A DNA stretch of 64,000 bases from Tepidiformaceae bacterium (GTDB taxonomy: Bacteria > Chloroflexota > Dehalococcoidia > Tepidiformales > Tepidiformaceae). Shown here one piece after another: positions 9,436 through 31,456 of the stretch (position 1 is the first letter of the stretch; each line of letters opens with the position of its first letter). A program made the translations under genes and the position numbers. The DNA is taken from NCBI GenBank assembly GCA_958295975.1, contig OY282446.1:1031289-1095288 (forward strand). The letters are read 5' to 3'. The notes under the pieces were generated by a model. It had not been told where the DNA came from and ran no database searches. It worked only from the letters and a program-made list of their open reading frames with translations.

Positions 9436-9464
9436 GGCTGCGTCGCCGACGGGCATGGGGTGGG

Positions 9465-9542
9465 GGCGAACGCGGGGCGAATGCGGGATTCGCGGGGGCG
9501 TTTGCACCCGTACTGGCAGTCGCCGCCCCTGTACTAGCACTT
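9465..9542. repeat. Direct repeat copy 1 (78 bp) with phased GGCGAA pair and promoter-like end
   Basis: This copy matches 9649-9726 over the same length (offset exactly 184 bp) with some substitutions. It starts with two GGCGAA half-sites 11 bp apart (9465-9470, 9476-9481) and ATTCGC at 9488-9493, which pairs with GCGAAT. It ends with TGTACT (9530-9535), a weak -10. An ATG at 9546 opens a 37-codon frame that ends at 9659; I do not consider that a proven gene. Confidence 0.7.
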
Positions 9543-9648
9543 CTCATGTCCGCAGGCTGGAATGCTATGCGGGGCCGCATCTTCCGCGTCCCGCCCGACG
9601 CCTCCTGGCATTCGCGGCGAAAGTCGATGGCCCAATCCGTGAGGGCGG

Positions 9649-9726
9649 GGCGAACGTAGGGCGAACGCGGGATTCGCGGGGGCGTTTGCGCTTGCACTGG
9701 CAGTCGATGCCCCTATACTAGCACTT
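9649..9726. repeat. Direct repeat copy 2 (78 bp) carrying the promoter of the AAA ATPase
   Basis: Second copy of the 78-bp unit. GGCGAA half-sites lie at 9649-9654 and 9660-9665, again 11 bp apart. ATTCGC is at 9672-9677. A good promoter is TTGCAC (9692-9697), 16-bp spacer, TATACT (9714-9719). A third GGCGAA pair with the same 11-bp spacing covers the start of the gene (9734-9739, 9745-9750). One helical turn between half-sites suggests cooperative protein binding on one DNA face. Confidence 0.7.
9692..9719 (+). promoter_or_regulatory. Promoter of the orphan AAA ATPase
   Basis: TTGCAC, 16-bp spacer, TATACT. Predicted transcription start is near 9726. That is at the in-frame TTG (9725) or 5 bp before the ATG (9731), so a leaderless or near-leaderless mRNA is expected. 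Confidence 0.6.
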
Positions 9727-14818: not shown

Positions 14819-15987
<1,169 letters not shown>

Positions 15988-16065
15988 GGCGGCTGCTCCT
16001 GGGAAGTCGCCGCGAGTGTAGCACCCGCGCGCCGCGCCGGGGGCCCGCCGTAGAATCTTCGGCGC

Positions 16066-16980
16066 ATGGCCATCCCCATCCTCTTCCTGCGGCTCGCGGC
16101 GAAGTGCTGGCGCAATCCGGCGCTCTGGCCGGAGCTGCGGCGCATGACCGTCCGCTACGCGCTCGGCCTCCATTTCCTGCCAGCCAGACGCGCGCGCACG
16201 CGCGCCCGCCAGCGGGAACGCATGGAAGCGGAGCGAGCCGAGGCACTGGCGTGGTGCCGCGAACGGGTCATCCAGCCCGACGAGCTGGCGCGACGGCTGG
16301 CGGTCCCCTTCGCGCCAGCCGATGTGGAGGCGGCCTTCCCCGACGCCTTCCGGGAAGCCCGCGCCCGCGTCGCGGCCTGCCCATTGGAGGAGTTCGGAGG
16401 GATCGTGAACGGCGGCGCCGCCAACCTGGACCTGCTGTACTCCCTGGCCCGGGCGGTGGACGCGCGCAGCATCGTCGAGACGGGCGTGGCCTTCGGCTGG
16501 AGCACGCTGGCGCTCCTGCTGGCGGTTGGCGAACGGGACGGCGCCCATGTCTTCAGCGTCGACCTCCCGCACTGCTTCAACACCCCGGACAGGAGATGGC
16601 GCGACGGGGACGGCTGGGTCGGGGCGGCCGTGCCGCACGCCCTGCGGAAGCGGTGGACCGTGTTCATGATGGCGGACCGGGAGGGGCTGCCGCGGGCGCT
16701 GCGGGCGGCGGCGCCCGTCGATCTGGCGCACTACGCCTCGGACCTGTCGCCGGAGGGGTGCGCGTTCGGCTATGCGGCCATCTGGCGTTCCCTGCGCGAG
16801 GGCGGCGCCTTCATCGCCGACGCCGTCGAGCGCAGCCCCGCCTTCCGGCGCTTCGCCGAGGATCTCGGCCTGGATCCCGTGGTCGTCGAGGGTGGCGATG
16901 GTGGCAGCGGCAAGTACCAGGGCATCCTGTTCAAACAGGCGCGACATTCGCCTCGGGCGAACGTTGCCACGGATGCGTGA
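16066..16980 (+). CDS. Class I SAM methyltransferase (Methyltransf_24-like)
   Basis: 304 aa. A basic N-terminus (residues 1-65) precedes a Rossmann methyltransferase: IVETGVAFGWSTLALLLA (about 139-156) binds SAM, FSVDLP (about 165-170) ends strand 2. VDLAHYASDLSPEG (about 218-231) corresponds to the D-x-SD-x-S block of this family. Such enzymes often act on surface sugars or secondary metabolites; the substrate is unknown. TAGAAT at 16051-16056 is a -10 candidate 9 bp before the ATG. The gene ends 12 bp before the palindromic repeat that precedes fic. Confidence 0.78.
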   Translation: MAIPILFLRLAAKCWRNPALWPELRRMTVRYALGLHFLPARRARTRARQRERMEAERAEALAWCRERVIQPDELARRLAVPFAPADVEAAFPDAFREARARVAACPLEEFGGIVNGGAANLDLLYSLARAVDARSIVETGVAFGWSTLALLLAVGERDGAHVFSVDLPHCFNTPDRRWRDGDGWVGAAVPHALRKRWTVFMMADREGLPRALRAAAPVDLAHYASDLSPEGCAFGYAAIWRSLREGGAFIADAVERSPAFRRFAEDLGLDPVVVEGGDGGSGKYQGILFKQARHSPRANVATDA

Positions 16981-16991
16981 GCGAGTCACTG

Positions 16992-17100
16992 CCATATTCA
17001 CTAATAAGGTGAATATGGAAGGCTCGGCGCTTCCTTATTCACCTGGGCGTGCGCTTGGACGCCACATGCGCGCCATGCTAAAGTACTAGGTGAACATGGA
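16992..17100. repeat. MITE-like palindromic repeat, left copy (about 109 bp)
   Basis: Imperfect direct repeat of 18291-18399 with an exact offset of 1299 bp, so the two copies flank fic. It contains a perfect inverted repeat, CCATATTCAC (16992-17001) and GTGAATATGG (17009-17018) with a 7-nt loop. A second imperfect one is CTTCC-TTATTCACCT against AGGTGAACATGGAAG (ending 17102). The outer ends CCATATTCAC and GTGAACATGG are near-inverted. The left copy also holds the fic promoter. Confidence 0.8.
17055..17084 (+). promoter_or_regulatory. Putative fic promoter inside the left repeat
   Basis: TTGGAC (17055-17060), an 18-bp spacer and TAAAGT (17079-17084). The palindrome arm GGTGAACATGG (17089-17099) overlaps the expected transcription start, so it could act as an operator. 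In the right-hand copy the -10 hexamer is lost. Confidence 0.45.
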
Positions 17101-17135
17101 AGCCGGTCCGCGGCTGTATTCACGCGGGGGACGAC

Positions 17136-18287
17136 ATGGCGGTCGAGACGCGAACGGGACGGTCGGGGCGCTATGAGCTCCAGCCCCAGGGCTACCGCGC
17201 CTTCATCCCCGCGCCCCTGCCGCCGTCGCCGCCGTTCGAGCTGACGCCGGAGCTGGCGGGCCTGCTGGCGCGCGCCGAGCAGGCGCTCGGGCGGCTCGAC
17301 GGCTCCACGCAGATCCTGCCCAGCCAGGACCTGTTCGTGGCCATGTACGTGCGCAAGGAGGCCGTGCTCTCCAGCCAGATCGAGGGCACGCAGAGCTCGC
17401 TGGACGACCTGCTCGCGGCCGAGGCCCGCGTGCTGCGCGCGCGCCAGCCGGAGGACGTGGGCGAGGTGCTGAACTACGTGGCCGCCATGGACCACGGGCT
17501 GGCGCGGCTGGAGACGCTGCCCGTCTCCGTGCGCCTCATCCGCGAGGTGCACGAGCGCCTGCTCACGGGCACGCGCGGCGGCGAACGCCAGCCCGGCCAG
17601 CTGCGCGAGAGCCAGAACTGGATCGGCCCCGCGGGGGCCATGCTGGGCGACGCCATCTACGTGCCGCCGCCACACCGGGTCGTGCCCGCCGTCCTCGGCG
17701 ACCTCGAACGCTTCATCCACGAGGAGCGCGATCTGCCCCTGCTCATCCGCATCGGGCTGGTGCACGCCCAGTTCGAGACGATTCACCCCTTCCTCGACGG
17801 CAACGGGCGCGTGGGGCGGCTGCTGATCACGCTCCTCCTCTGCGAGCAGGGGGCGCTGCAACGGCCCGTCCTCTACCTCTCGCACTTCCTCAGGGAGCAC
17901 CGCCGGGACTACTACGCCGCCCTCCAGGCGGTGCGCGAGGACGGGGCATGGGAGGAGTGGACCGCGTTCTTCCTGCGGGCCGTGGCGGCCTCCGCCGGGG
18001 ACGCCACCGAGACGGCGCGGCGCATCGTCGACCTGCGCGAGCGCCACCGCGGCCTCATCGTCGCGCACCTCGGCCGCGGCGCGGGCACGGGCCTGCGCCT
18101 GCTCGAGGCCCTCTACCGGCGCCCGCTCATCGACGTGCCCGAGGCGCGGGCGATCCTCGGCCTCACCTTCCAGGGGGCGAACCGGCTGGTGCGCCGCCTC
18201 ACCGAGTTGGGCATCCTCACGGAGATGACCGGCCAGCAGCGCAACCGCGTCTTCCGCTGCTCCGAGTACGCCGACCTGTTCGCCTAG
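17136..18287 (+). CDS. Fic-family protein (class II adenylyltransferase-like) with C-terminal HTH
   Basis: 383 aa. N-terminal Fic_N region; inhibitory helix motif S79-x3-E83-G84 (SSQIEG), which blocks ATP in class II Fic proteins. The Fic core starts at H217 (HPFLDGNGRVGR), a complete active site for AMP transfer to Ser/Thr/Tyr hydroxyls of a target. The C-terminal 80 residues form a winged-helix (ARAILGLTFQGANRLVRRLT, then GILTEM). Probable role: self-regulated AMPylator, possibly binding its own flanking palindromes. ATG start after GGGGGAC. Flanked on both sides by 109-bp repeats, so it may be a mobile or acquired unit. Confidence 0.92.
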   Translation: MAVETRTGRSGRYELQPQGYRAFIPAPLPPSPPFELTPELAGLLARAEQALGRLDGSTQILPSQDLFVAMYVRKEAVLSSQIEGTQSSLDDLLAAEARVLRARQPEDVGEVLNYVAAMDHGLARLETLPVSVRLIREVHERLLTGTRGGERQPGQLRESQNWIGPAGAMLGDAIYVPPPHRVVPAVLGDLERFIHEERDLPLLIRIGLVHAQFETIHPFLDGNGRVGRLLITLLLCEQGALQRPVLYLSHFLREHRRDYYAALQAVREDGAWEEWTAFFLRAVAASAGDATETARRIVDLRERHRGLIVAHLGRGAGTGLRLLEALYRRPLIDVPEARAILGLTFQGANRLVRRLTELGILTEMTGQQRNRVFRCSEYADLFA

Positions 18288-18290
18288 ATT

Positions 18291-18399
18291 CCATATTCAT
18301 CTAAGAGATGAACATGGAGGGCGCGGCGCTTCCTTATTCACCTGAGCGTGCGTTTGGATGCACCGGACGCTCCATACGAACCTCTTAGTTCAATATGGA
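18291..18399. repeat. MITE-like palindromic repeat, right copy (about 109 bp)
   Basis: Starts 3 bp after the fic stop. The inverted repeat CCATATTCATCT (18291-18302) pairs with AGATGAACATGG (18306-18317) with one mismatch and a 3-nt loop. The outer ends are terminal inverted repeats: CCATATTCATCTAAG against CCATATTGAACTAAG (complement of the right end), 13 of 15 matching. A third palindrome TCCATA-GAAC...GTTC-TATGGA covers 18371-18399. It could also act as a terminator for fic, though no T-run follows. Confidence 0.8.
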
Positions 18400-18412
18400 G
18401 CGCGGGCAGTGC

Positions 18413-19773
<1,361 letters not shown>

Positions 19774-26355: not shown

Positions 26356-26808
26356 TCAGTCGCGTTTGGGCACGGGACGCCAGCCCACGCCCTCCGCCAG
26401 GATGGCCGTCACCAGCTGGTTGAGCGAGGTCTCCTGCGCCGCCGCCTCGCGCGCCAGCCGCTCGTGCAGCCCCGCGGGCACGCGCACGCGGAACCTGCCG
26501 TCGTACTCCGGAAAGTGCTCCTTCGGCGGCGGGATCTCCCAGCCCTCCTCGAGCGCGCCCCCGATCCAGAGCTCCATCGCCTCGCGGATCATGGCCGTCG
26601 CCTCCTCGGGCGTGTCGCCATGACTCATGCAGCCCCTGAACTCCTCGACGTAGGCCATCCACACGGGATCGCCTTCGGAGTCGTCGTAGTACATGCACAC
26701 GGTGTAGGGCCGCCTCAGGTACTCCGCGACCTGCGCCGCGATTTCGGGATCGTCGAGCGGATCGTGCGGCTGCGTCGTCGCGGGCACCGCCTGTTCAGCC
26801 GTCGTCAT
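26356..26808 (-). CDS. hicB: HicB antitoxin, copy 1
   Basis: 150 aa. N-terminal HicB fold: YTVCMYYDDSEGDPVWMAYVEEFRG, DTPEEATAMIREAMELWI. C-terminal ribbon-helix-helix (about 108-140): FRVRVPAGLHERLAREAAAQ, TSLNQLVTAIL, for operator binding. It neutralises the HicA toxin encoded immediately upstream on the same strand (14-bp overlap). It is a close duplicate of 27068-27523. The region before residue 85 has diverged most. Confidence 0.93.
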   Translation of the reverse strand: MTTAEQAVPATTQPHDPLDDPEIAAQVAEYLRRPYTVCMYYDDSEGDPVWMAYVEEFRGCMSHGDTPEEATAMIREAMELWIGGALEEGWEIPPPKEHFPEYDGRFRVRVPAGLHERLAREAAAQETSLNQLVTAILAEGVGWRPVPKRD

Positions 26809-27043
26809 TACGCATCACCTCGTCGATCGCCTTGAGCGCGTCCCGAACGTACACCTGTTTGACCGGCCTGCGGTACGGAACGACCACCGCGTCCTCGCGG
26901 CGCGGATGACGGTAGCGCCAGTGGCTCCCGCGCACGTGGACCAGCGTGAAGCCCGCCGATTCCAGCGCCGTCCGCAACGCCTCCGGCGAAACGTCCGTCT
27001 GCGAGCGGCGGAGCCGTTCGATGCGCCGCTCCCGTCTCACCAC
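26795..27043 (-). CDS. hicA: HicA toxin, copy 1
   Basis: mRNA interferase with a double-stranded RNA-binding-like fold, 82 aa. The catalytic His lies in VRGSHWRYRHPR (residues about 39-50), and VVVPYRRPVKQVYVRDALKAID closes the fold. Two adjacent in-frame GTG codons are possible starts. A TATCAT -10 box (complement of 27048-27053) lies 4 or 7 bp upstream, and the second GTG (27038-27040) fits the usual 6-7 bp spacing better. Forms a toxin-antitoxin operon with hicB copy 1. Confidence 0.92.
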   Translation of the reverse strand: MVRRERRIERLRRSQTDVSPEALRTALESAGFTLVHVRGSHWRYRHPRREDAVVVPYRRPVKQVYVRDALKAIDEVMRNDDG

Positions 27044-27067
27044 CGCGATGATACCGCGGGCGGCGGG

Positions 27068-27523
27068 TCAGTCGCGGTCGCCCGCCGGACGCCAGCCCAC
27101 GCCCTCCGCCAGGATGGCCGTCACCAGCTGGTTGAGCGAGGTCTCCTGCGCCTCCGCCTCGCGCGCCAGCCGCTCGTGCAGCCCCGCGGGCACACGCACG
27201 CGGAACCTGCCGTCGTACTCCGGAAAGTGCTCCTTCGGCGGCGGGATCGGGTCGCCGTGCTCGACGGCGCTCCCGATCCAGAGCTCCATCGCCTCGCGGA
27301 TCATGGCCGTCGCCTCTTCGGGCGTGTCCCCCTGACTGACGCAGCCACGCAGCTCCTCCACCCACACCACCCAGGCGGGCGGTCCGCCGGGCGAGTCATC
27401 GCGCACCATCGTGATGGTGTAGGGCTTCTCCAGGTATTCCGCGACCTTCGCCGCGATTTCGGGATCGTCGAGCGGATCGTGCGGCTGCGCCGTTGCGGGC
27501 GCCGCCTGTTCAACCGTGGTCAT
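27068..27523 (-). CDS. hicB: HicB antitoxin, copy 2
   Basis: 151 aa, the paralogue of 26356-26808. The RHH half is almost identical (FRVRVPAGLHERLAREAEAQ, TSLNQLVTAILAEGVGWRP). The N-terminal half differs (YTITMVRDDSPGGPPAWVVWVEELRG), as expected if each antitoxin recognises its own toxin. It overlaps the hicA copy 2 stop by 14 bp, as in copy 1. Only 24 bp separate its stop from the copy 1 hicA start. Confidence 0.93.
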   Translation of the reverse strand: MTTVEQAAPATAQPHDPLDDPEIAAKVAEYLEKPYTITMVRDDSPGGPPAWVVWVEELRGCVSQGDTPEEATAMIREAMELWIGSAVEHGDPIPPPKEHFPEYDGRFRVRVPAGLHERLAREAEAQETSLNQLVTAILAEGVGWRPAGDRD

Positions 27524-27758
27524 GGCGCATCACCTCGTCGATCGCCTTCAGCGCATTCCGAACGTACACCGGCTTGACCGGCCTGCGGTAGGGAACGACA
27601 ACCTTCTCGACCAGAGCGGGATGCCAGTACTGCCAATGACTCCCCGTGGTGCGCTCCAGCTCGAAGCCGAACCACTCCAGCGCCGTCCGCAGCGCCTCCG
27701 GCGAGACGTCCGTCTGCGAGCGGCGGAGCCGTTCGATGCGCCGCTCCCGTCTCACCAC
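27510..27758 (-). CDS. hicA: HicA toxin, copy 2
   Basis: 82 aa. The first 27 residues are identical to copy 1 (VRRERRIERLRRSQTDVSPE). The active-site region differs (LERTTGSHWQYWHPALVEK), with the catalytic His in GSHW. Start GTG inferred by alignment with copy 1; the same TATCAT box is at the complement of 27763-27768. The gene continues open far upstream, but that is GC-rich frame shadow. Confidence 0.9.
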   Translation of the reverse strand: MVRRERRIERLRRSQTDVSPEALRTALEWFGFELERTTGSHWQYWHPALVEKVVVPYRRPVKPVYVRNALKAIDEVMRHDHG

Positions 27759-27855
27759 CGCGATGATACCGCAGCGCGCCCCACGAGCGCCCCGCGGAGG
27801 CGGCGTTGACGGCTGCTGCTGAAGCCTTGCATCAGGCGAACGAGCAGGCGCGCGC

Positions 27856-30295: not shown

Positions 30296-31456
30296 CTAAC
30301 GCCGGAACTGCGACATGGCCTCGTGCCGCGGGCGCACGAGGCCGTCCTCGCGCACGATCAGGCCGAGGGCCTCGAGGCGGGCGAGGTCGCGCGTCAGCGT
30401 CTTGCGCGACACGCCCGTCCAGACGTACGCCAGCGGGCCGCGCCGCGCGAGCAGATCGGCCTCGCCCACGGGCTCCGCGAGGCCGTCCATGAACGCCGCC
30501 AGCCGCCCGCGCACGGCCGCGCCCAAGCCACCGCCGGATATGATGGTCGAGCGGGCATGGTCGCGGAAGGCGATGCGCGTGATCGCCGCCAGGACTTCCC
30601 CGCGCACCGTCTCCATCTCCTCGACCAGCCCCGACGCGGCGAAGCGGACGAAGGGCGTGAGGTCCCCGTCCGGGTTGAAACGGCAACGGTCGAGCAGGGC
30701 GATGTATTCGGGGCGGTTGCGGTAGTAGAAGTTGGCGAGCGAATAGAAGCCGAGCACGTTCACGCCGGTCTGGTAGAGCAGGTAGCTCTCCACCGCGCGC
30801 GCCGTGCGCCCGTTGCCGTCGCCGAAGGGATGGATGCTGACGAAGTAGAAGTGGGCGGCGACGGCGCGCACGATCGGGAGCCAGGCTGTGGCGGGCGGCG
30901 TGTTCAGCCAGTCGACGAATTCGGCCATGAGCCGCCGCACGCCGTCGCCGTCGCGGGGCGGGACGTAGTCTCCGACGCGCACGGGGTGCGAGCGGTAGAC
31001 GCCGGGTTCGTTGTGGGGATAGTCGATGCCCTCGGTCGTGAGGCGGTGGAGTTCGAGGATCAGTTCCTCCGTGAGCGGACGCGCGGGGGCCGCGTCAATG
31101 GTTCGCGTGATGAAATCCATGACCGCCGCCGCGTTGCGCGCCTCCCGCTCGTCGCGGGCGCGGGAGGCGGGCAGCACGGGCGTCTCCGGGGGCGTCGCGA
31201 GGATGCGCCCGACCTCCTCCTCGGCCAGCTCCGTGCCCTCGATGCCGGTCGTCCCCCGCACGGCGCGCACAACGTTGAGCCGGTCGAGCCGCTCCTGAAC
31301 CGCCGGCGACAGGGGCACGCCGCGGATGACCTTCGCCACCGCCTCGGCCTCCGCGACGGCGCGGATCAACGCGAGGTCGTCGAGGGCGATGCGCCGGTCG
31401 AAGGTCACGTCCCAGGCTGGCATGGCGCTCCCGCTGTCCGCGAAGTTGTCCCGCAT
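30296..31456 (-). CDS. Fic-family protein, second copy type
   Basis: 386 aa, not a close paralogue of the Fic at 17136. Inhibitory motif T69-x3-E73-G74 (TTGIEG); complete Fic motif from H209 (HPFGDGNGRTAR). A C-terminal winged helix (about 320-375: WTGVSRKTLTRDLARLEALGLI) suggests DNA binding. Start ATG at 31454-31456; M12 is an alternative. Its promoter region carries an unusual phased TTGTCC array, consistent with autoregulation. Confidence 0.9.
   Translation of the reverse strand: MRDNFADSGSAMPAWDVTFDRRIALDDLALIRAVAEAEAVAKVIRGVPLSPAVQERLDRLNVVRAVRGTTGIEGTELAEEEVGRILATPPETPVLPASRARDEREARNAAAVMDFITRTIDAAPARPLTEELILELHRLTTEGIDYPHNEPGVYRSHPVRVGDYVPPRDGDGVRRLMAEFVDWLNTPPATAWLPIVRAVAAHFYFVSIHPFGDGNGRTARAVESYLLYQTGVNVLGFYSLANFYYRNRPEYIALLDRCRFNPDGDLTPFVRFAASGLVEEMETVRGEVLAAITRIAFRDHARSTIISGGGLGAAVRGRLAAFMDGLAEPVGEADLLARRGPLAYVWTGVSRKTLTRDLARLEALGLIVREDGLVRPRHEAMSQFRR

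What the first reader, a model, noticed from the sequence alone, without database searches (positions are those of the whole stretch)
16992..18399. fic gene flanked by two 109-bp MITE-like repeats with nested palindromes
Repeats 16992-17100 and 18291-18399 keep an exact 1299-bp offset. Each starts with a palindrome based on CCATATTCAC/GTGAATATGG and ends in an inverted match to its own start. The left copy carries the fic promoter; the right copy has lost its -10. This looks like either a mobile cassette bounded by small elements or a duplicated operator used by the Fic HTH domain.
Basis: seen in the sequence. Interest (0 to 1): 0.7.

Follow-up and report, generated by a model that had tools for sequence, protein, structure and literature searches.

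The report
Toxin-like fic gene between operator arrays
The two repeats around this gene are not tiny jumping elements but arrays of a 27-letter palindrome, most likely the docking sites through which a defence-type enzyme (Fic) shuts off its own gene; the same arrays precede its relatives in many bacterial phyla, and so far a second array behind the gene was seen only in this lineage.

Summary
In detail: direct repeats 16992-17115 and 18291-18414 keep a 1299-bp offset (73% ungapped; alignment score 116, best of 300 shuffles 35). Each holds two 27-bp palindromes, CCATRYT-N13-ARYATGG. The MITE reading fails: the genome has no copy of the repeat outside the fic locus. The operator reading is strongly supported. 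A motif learned from half of a cross-phylum set of fic relatives (CCATATTAAAGGCAGCCTTTAATATGG) recurs upstream of fic in 22 of 38 held-out loci, against 0 of 65 distant flanks and 11 of 760 shuffles; all 27 loci of at least 60% identity carry it. Sites lie 40-41 bp apart, in phase with the start codon. Of 236 variable Fic columns, the four that co-vary best with the operator lie in the two helices of the predicted HTH, although a tree-corrected test is underpowered. A second, downstream array is special to this lineage (5 of 5 loci; 0 of 73 others). Sister genomes show occupied sites, empty sites and one fic-less array; another shows a fic 3' remnant next to an array. Best reading: a SoFic-like enzyme that autorepresses through an operator array, duplicated around the gene and recombining. 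Fic autorepression is known (CccR); this operator architecture was not found in my searches.

The parts
16992..17115 (.). upstream operator array (left 124-nt unit of the direct repeat)
   Evidence: (D1)
16992..17018 (.). 27-bp palindromic operator, -144 relative to the fic start codon
   Evidence: model score 15.2 bits
17033..17042 (+). half-site CCTTATTCAC in the -103 register; right arm degenerate
   Evidence: read; not above the half-site threshold
17073..17099 (.). 27-bp palindromic operator, -63 register, overlapping the possible -10 hexamer
   Evidence: 8.7 bits
17114..17140 (+). degenerate last unit (CTGTATTCAC ... ACATGG) overlapping the fic start codon
   Evidence: read; relatives have a scored site at -23
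17136..18287 (+). fic gene, 383 aa: Fic_N, Fic domain, C-terminal winged HTH; SoFic-like
17370..17387 (+). inhibitory-helix motif SSQIEG (class II type, SxxxEG), residues 79-84
   Evidence: translation; S79, E83 and G84 invariant in 40 homologues
17784..17819 (+). catalytic motif HPFLDGNGRVGR, residues 217-228
   Evidence: conserved in 40 homologues
18168..18206 (+). predicted recognition helix of the wHTH, residues 345-357
   Evidence: AlphaFold2 model; co-varies with operator positions 10-11
18291..18414 (.). downstream operator array (right 124-nt unit)
18291..18317 (.). 27-bp palindromic operator
   Evidence: 15.6 bits
18332..18341 (+). half-site CCTTATTCAC, equivalent of 17033-17042
   Evidence: read
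18372..18398 (.). 27-bp palindromic operator
   Evidence: 18.5 bits

Best explanation
The gene encodes a SoFic-like class II Fic protein: a self-inhibited AMP-transferase, probably a toxic or anti-phage protein, with a C-terminal winged HTH. The repeats are arrays of its own operator, a 27-bp palindrome repeated every 40-41 bp (about four helical turns) from about -144 to the start codon. The HTH of a Fic dimer binds these sites and blocks the promoter, keeping the dangerous product scarce (negative autoregulation). In this Dehalococcoidia lineage the array was also copied behind the gene, probably by a tandem duplication of array plus fic followed by loss of the spare fic. The two arrays stay alike by recombination, which can also delete fic and leave a single array. 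The downstream copy may tighten repression by looping or by titrating Fic. Shown here: the repeats, the operator's conservation, spacing and phase, its restriction to one Fic subfamily, the lineage-specific second array, and occupied, solo and empty sites. Inferred: direct binding, repression, dimer binding, looping or titration, toxicity.
For: Operator: all 38 seeds of a palindromic EM search on 37 loci (window genus excluded) had near-identical outcomes in the eight best listed, one motif of about 19.6 bits, CCATATTAAAGGCAGCCTTTAATATGG. At 10 bits or more, 22 of 38 held-out loci have it in the 250 bp upstream, against 0 of 36 far upstream, 0 of 29 far downstream, 0 of 36 just downstream, 1 of 38 inside the gene and 11 of 760 shuffles. 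By identity to this Fic: 27 of 27 loci at 60% or more, 18 of 26 (56-60), 6 of 27 (52-56), 2 of 12 (46-52), 1 of 13 (below 46) (training loci included). Spacing of neighbouring sites: 60 of 67 are 39-42 bp (46 are exactly 40), 6 are 80-82, 1 is 63; the commonest starts are -63, -23 and -103. HTH link: of 236 variable columns the four with the strongest association to an operator position are 352, 351, 341 and 347, all inside the two HTH helices 334-341 and 345-357 of the model (pLDDT 91). Precedent: CccR, a Fic-HTH protein, represses its own gene through a palindrome (PMC9755527, passages). Second array: 5 of 5 loci of this lineage have sites downstream, against 0 of 37 and 0 of 36 others. Up- and downstream arrays of one genome resemble each other (window 87/107, G018 143/162) more than the upstream arrays of window and sister genomes do (best local score 26 or less, against 94). 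G018 has a 42-codon fic 3' remnant plus array, 253 bp at 89% to the intact copy. G001 has an array without fic; G003, G005 and G006 have neither.
Against: No binding or expression data. The tree-corrected test of the HTH-operator link is inconclusive: residue 347=G goes with operator C11 in 8 of 9 loci (6 of 37 otherwise), but G347 changes only 4 times on the tree and only 4 independent pairs exist. Over all columns 321-365 the mean association is no higher than in most other segments (0.38 against 0.23-0.64); only the top pairs and operator position 11 single out the HTH. 16 of 38 held-out relatives have no site at 10 bits. No sigma-70 promoter was found by consensus. In the viral-contig set, 6 of 80 fic loci had an upstream site, none of the 7 at 50% identity or more with a matching N-terminus. 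In G002, G004 and G007 the two arrays of one genome are not clearly more alike than arrays of different sister genomes. The function of the downstream array is untested.
Confidence: 0.8

Rival explanations
1. Array-fic-array is a small non-autonomous mobile cassette (MITE-like or REPtron-like) whose ends are the arrays and which is moved by an enzyme encoded elsewhere.
For: Occupied sites (G002, G004, G007), a solo array (G001) and empty sites (G003, G005, G006) at one intergenic place in the genus. G003 and G006 are nested inside the occupied clade. In G004 the 4-bp CCGC stands at both junctions and once in the empty sites of G003 and G006. Window and G018 have fic in other contexts.
Against: No dispersed copies in the own genome. 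In other phyla the array is upstream only (0 of 73 downstream). No recombinase gene was noticed nearby. CCGC is short in GC-rich DNA, and the junctions of G002 and G007 do not show it cleanly. Loss and replacement by homologous recombination explain the states as well.
Confidence: 0.12
2. The palindromes are operators of another regulator, and fic is only a target.
For: Binding was not shown. An array with another palindrome also precedes a Schlafen/AlbA_2 gene in this genome.
Against: The operator is tied to fic itself across phyla and fades with Fic identity. In the own genome the palindrome pattern occurs at this fic, near the second fic paralogue and at two other places only. The strongest co-varying columns lie in the Fic HTH.
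Confidence: 0.08
3. The downstream palindromes act as a bidirectional transcription terminator between the convergent genes fic and cysS.
For: The gap is convergent in the window, and also in G002, G004 and G007. The window's downstream array folds better than shuffles as RNA (z -4.0 and -6.9 on the two strands).
Against: No U-tract terminator by scan. G018's downstream array has no special RNA fold (z 0.3). The same palindromes stand upstream of fic, where a terminator would be out of place.
Confidence: 0.1

Closest known systems
CccR (YPK_0951) of Yersinia pseudotuberculosis, PMC9755527
   Same: Class II Fic protein with a C-terminal HTH that binds a palindrome in its own promoter and represses it.
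   Different: Its footprint is two 10-bp arms 26 bp apart (46 nt), one site; here 27-bp palindromes stand in a 40-bp array, with a second array behind the gene. Fold similarity to 7xux, which I take to be CccR (recalled, not stated in the call), is partial: TM 0.57, 20% identity.
SoFic / Sofic anti-phage AMP-transferase (PDB 3eqx, 3zec; PADLOC SoFic)
   Same: Domain order, fold (TM 0.81) and the PADLOC SoFic profile at 394 bits.
   Different: Below the NCBIfam SoFic equivalog cut-off (174 against 550 bits). No 47-aa AS1-like gene downstream: the ORF lying wholly inside the gap has 26 codons.
CbFic2 of Coxiella burnetii (PDB 8cil), PMC10628234
   Same: Class II Fic with a wHTH that binds DNA; DNA binding changes its activity.
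   Different: Studied with random DNA; no operator described in the passages read.
REPtrons / MITEs (recalled, no call)
   Same: A gene between palindromic repeats.
   Different: No dispersed copies and no transposase-like gene between the repeats.

Membership tests
Class II Fic protein with C-terminal wHTH (SoFic-like) | Fic_N and Fic domains with HPFx(D/E)GNGRxxR | tested here: met
   Pfam Fic_N 97 bits, Fic 64 bits; HPFLDGNGRVGR at 217-228
Class II Fic protein with C-terminal wHTH (SoFic-like) | N-terminal inhibitory motif (S/T)xxxE(G/N) | tested here: met
   SSQIEG at 79-84, conserved in the 40-row alignment
Class II Fic protein with C-terminal wHTH (SoFic-like) | C-terminal winged HTH and SoFic fold | tested here: met
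   AlphaFold2 model pLDDT 91; best PDB match SoFic 3zec, TM 0.81
SoFic in the strict sense (NCBIfam NF046030 equivalog) | score above the curated cut-off | tested here: not met
   174.2 against 550 bits
Autorepressing Fic-HTH (CccR type) | palindrome in the own promoter, conserved with the gene | tested here: met
Autorepressing Fic-HTH (CccR type) | protein binds the palindrome and represses | not testable with these tools
   needs EMSA and a reporter fusion
MITE | many dispersed copies in the genome | tested here: not met
   only two units in 2.4 Mb
MITE | target-site duplication and empty sites | tested here: inconclusive
   empty sites exist in sister genomes; only a 4-bp CCGC at both ends in G004
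REPtron | RAYT-type transposase with dispersed REP palindromes | tested here: not met
   the enclosed gene is fic; no dispersed copies
Sofic-AS1 toxin-antitoxin pair | small AS1 gene downstream of Sofic | tested here: not met
   no ORF over 26 codons lies wholly between fic and cysS; the gap is the array

The most novel reading that the evidence does not exclude
The flanking arrays are a DNA antitoxin. Operator-bound Fic is held as dimers in an inactive or deAMPylating state (CbFic2 is reported to switch mode on DNA binding), and the doubled array raises the number of such sites around the only gene. When a phage degrades or outcompetes host DNA, Fic is released as an active AMP-transferase. 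The arrays also make array-fic-array a self-contained unit that can be gained, lost or reduced to a solo array without any recombinase of its own.
Probability: 0.1. Interest if true: 0.8.

Novelty: new variant of a known kind. Interest (0 to 1): 0.5.

Why it matters
It gives a sequence-based operator for a subfamily of SoFic-like proteins, a group used in phage-defence annotation whose control is largely open. The 27-bp site, the 40-bp register and the matching HTH positions make direct binding, and the effect of DNA on AMPylation, testable in many organisms. The lineage with arrays on both sides, a solo array and clean empty sites suggests how an autoregulated toxin-like gene can be duplicated and lost through its own operators.

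Tried and rejected
MITE or dispersed repeat: rejected, no further copies. Structured RNA: no Rfam match at E up to 1 in 16500-19000; RNA folding is strong in the window and absent in G018's array, so a DNA-level palindrome fits better. Terminator and consensus promoter: none by scan. Phage cargo: relatives in phage records are distant (25 of 50,697 records, all under 60% identity; the best that covers 80% or more of the query has 29%), and viral-contig relatives lack the operator. Plasmids: 996 of 72,556 records hold relatives, 3 of them at 60% or more; their promoters were not examined. Restriction-modification: in L054 the order is hsdM-fic-hsdS-hsdR (Pfam); hsdM is found in 13 of 81 family loci and hsdS in 5 of 81, none of them the window or its sisters, so R-M linkage is not part of the explanation. 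Family-wide pattern search at 2 mismatches is too loose to count solo sites: reversed-pattern controls are of the same order in most genomes.

Literature: searches (open PMC library only). I saw passages, outline and abstract of PMC9755527, passages of PMC10628234, passages and part 1 of 4 of the text of PMC12249575, and looked for terms in PMC12255303 without a hit; the rest were search listings. None of these describes a 40-bp-spaced operator array around fic; subscription papers are not covered.

Rows dropped: 3 near-duplicate loci of 110; 2 of 107 for short upstream sequence; the window genus and L027 left out of motif training; rows with an internal stop left out of the co-variation set, leaving 78 aligned proteins, 46 of them with sites; L055 (a stop in its frame) and others left out of alignment A1, which holds 40 rows chosen by hand from the fetched loci.

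Full report
WHAT IS THERE. Each unit carries two 27-bp palindromes, CCATRYT-N13-ARYATGG, 81 bp apart (16992, 17073; 18291, 18372). A pattern for them has four hits in the window with 0.22 expected. Between the palindromes lie half-sites in the same 40-41-bp register (17033, 17114, 18332; by eye), one of them running into the fic start codon. The gene between the units encodes 383 aa with Fic_N and Fic domains, the inhibitory motif SSQIEG, the catalytic motif HPFLDGNGRVGR, and a C-terminal winged HTH in a confident model (pLDDT 91). The nearest solved folds are SoFic (TM 0.81) and a Mycobacterium marinum Fic protein (TM 0.83). PADLOC's SoFic profile matches with 394 bits, but the NCBIfam SoFic equivalog cut-off is missed, so it is SoFic-like rather than SoFic in the strict sense. 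A contig in a sister genome of the same genus (G007 C111, 40218 bases) corresponds to a record titled Dehalococcoidia bacterium, which is how I place the window.

THE PALINDROME IS A CONSERVED fic OPERATOR. I fetched fic relatives from 99 related genomes (52 with a match) and 80 loci across phyla. After removing 3 near-duplicates, 107 of 110 loci remained. Leaving out the window's genus and L027, I trained a palindromic motif on 37 of the 75 loci with at least 52% identity. The eight best of 38 seeds, from eight different loci, ended in the same solution: CCATATTAAAGGCAGCCTTTAATATGG, about 19.6 bits. On the held-out 38, at 10 bits, 22 upstream regions have a site; far upstream 0 of 36, far downstream 0 of 29, just downstream 0 of 36, inside the gene 1 of 38, shuffled upstream 11 of 760. 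By identity to the window's Fic, loci with a site are 27 of 27 (60% and more), 18 of 26, 6 of 27, 2 of 12 and 1 of 13: the operator belongs to this subfamily. These bins include training loci and the window's own genus. In the 64-kb window the trained model hits the four palindromes and nothing else at 8 bits.

ARCHITECTURE. Of 67 distances between neighbouring sites, 46 are 40 bp, 12 are 41, one 39, one 42, six 80-82 and one 63. Sites prefer starts at -63, -23 and -103 from the start codon (9, 8 and 6 sites, window lineage not counted); in the -23 site the start codon ATGG supplies the right arm. The window keeps this register (-144, -63).

WHO BINDS IT. Of 236 variable Fic columns, the four most associated with an operator position are 352 (position 10), 351, 341 and 347 (position 11). 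All four lie in helices 334-341 and 345-357 of the model, the HTH. Three of the five best pairs are in the recognition helix (hypergeometric p 0.0009); for position 11, columns 340-353 exceed the rest (p 0.004, one of several uncorrected tests). G347 goes with C at position 11 in 8 of 9 loci, against 6 of 37. Against this, the HTH as a whole is not clearly more associated than the rest, and the tree-corrected comparison has only 4 independent pairs, so it cannot decide. The direct precedent is CccR, whose HTH binds a palindrome in its own promoter and represses it (PMC9755527).

THE SECOND ARRAY. At 10 bits a downstream site is present in 5 of 5 loci of this lineage (window, G002, G004, G007, G018) and in 0 of 37 and 0 of 36 others. 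G025, of the same family, has upstream sites only. Within the window and within G018 the two arrays resemble each other (87 of 107 and 143 of 162 bases), while the upstream arrays of the window and its sisters hardly align: there the arrays evolve together, by duplication or conversion. In G002, G004 and G007 this is not seen. In G018 a 42-codon fic 3' remnant precedes the left array, and fic end plus array form a 253-bp, 89% duplication; this is a tandem duplication of fic and array with one fic lost. In the genus, G002, G004 and G007 have array-fic-array between the same two genes; G003, G005 and G006 have neither; G001 has an array of at least two scored sites without fic, as deletion between two arrays would leave. 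On a tree of neighbouring proteins the empty G003 and G006 are nested inside the occupied clade, so loss, or replacement by an empty allele, has happened unless fic was gained several times. In G004 CCGC stands at both junctions and once in the empty sites; that fits either a short target duplication or a deletion at microhomology. In the window fic sits between another gene pair (methyltransferase and cysS), which an inversion or a separate arrival could explain. The genus genomes are 89-96% complete by the tool's estimate, so an ortholog could be missed.

MECHANISM. Most likely the Fic dimer binds its own operator array and represses transcription; the array overlaps the only promoter-like hexamers, seen by eye, since the consensus scan found none. 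The downstream array may allow looping over 1.3 kb or hold extra Fic. Binding, repression and the role of the second array are inferences.

VERDICT. The MITE reading is rejected and the operator reading is supported. It is a new variant of a known kind: Fic autorepression is known, while the 40-bp-spaced 27-bp operator array across phyla and the doubled, recombining array around the gene were not found in my searches.

Noticed in passing
L134 (G000:C1:991206-994232), repeats 1431-1492, 1544-1605, 1585-1646: A second, distant fic paralogue (35% identity) of the same genome also has repeated upstream DNA (62-nt copies, spacings 113 and 41) and a 27-bp palindrome of the same type at L134 1501-1527.
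   Followed up: partly
L133 (G000:C1:980835-983861), 1501-1797: Three direct repeats about 108 bp apart, each with a palindrome like TACTCTAACATTGTTAGAGTA, lie just upstream of a gene with Schlafen/AlbA_2 and RecG C-terminal domains: another operator-array-like promoter.
   Followed up: partly
window 30296-31456 (-): Another Fic-type gene (386 aa, HPFGDGNGR) in the window; the operator pattern and model have no hit near it.
   Followed up: no
window 26356-27057 and 27068-27772: Tandem duplication with a period of about 715 bp (85-92% identical pieces), probably a duplicated gene.
   Followed up: no
window 9456-9542 and 9640-9726: An 87-nt direct repeat, 85% identical, ending in CCCCTRTACTAGCACTT.
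   Followed up: no
L054 453-7123: In Rhodanobacter sp. A1T4 the fic gene with its operator stands inside a type I restriction-modification operon (hsdM-fic-hsdS-hsdR); hsdM is near fic in 13 of 81 family loci.
   Followed up: partly
L029 and L030, flanks of fic: More distant Fic relatives (53-55%) show a different, longer palindrome of about 34 bp (CTTATTTCACGAA ... TTCGTGAAATAAG), seen by eye; operator spacing may differ between Fic subfamilies.
   Followed up: no
L156 (G008), cysS at 15614-17265: The cysS match of G008 is in two pieces with two in-frame TGA codons reported: possibly an assembly error or a broken gene.
   Followed up: no
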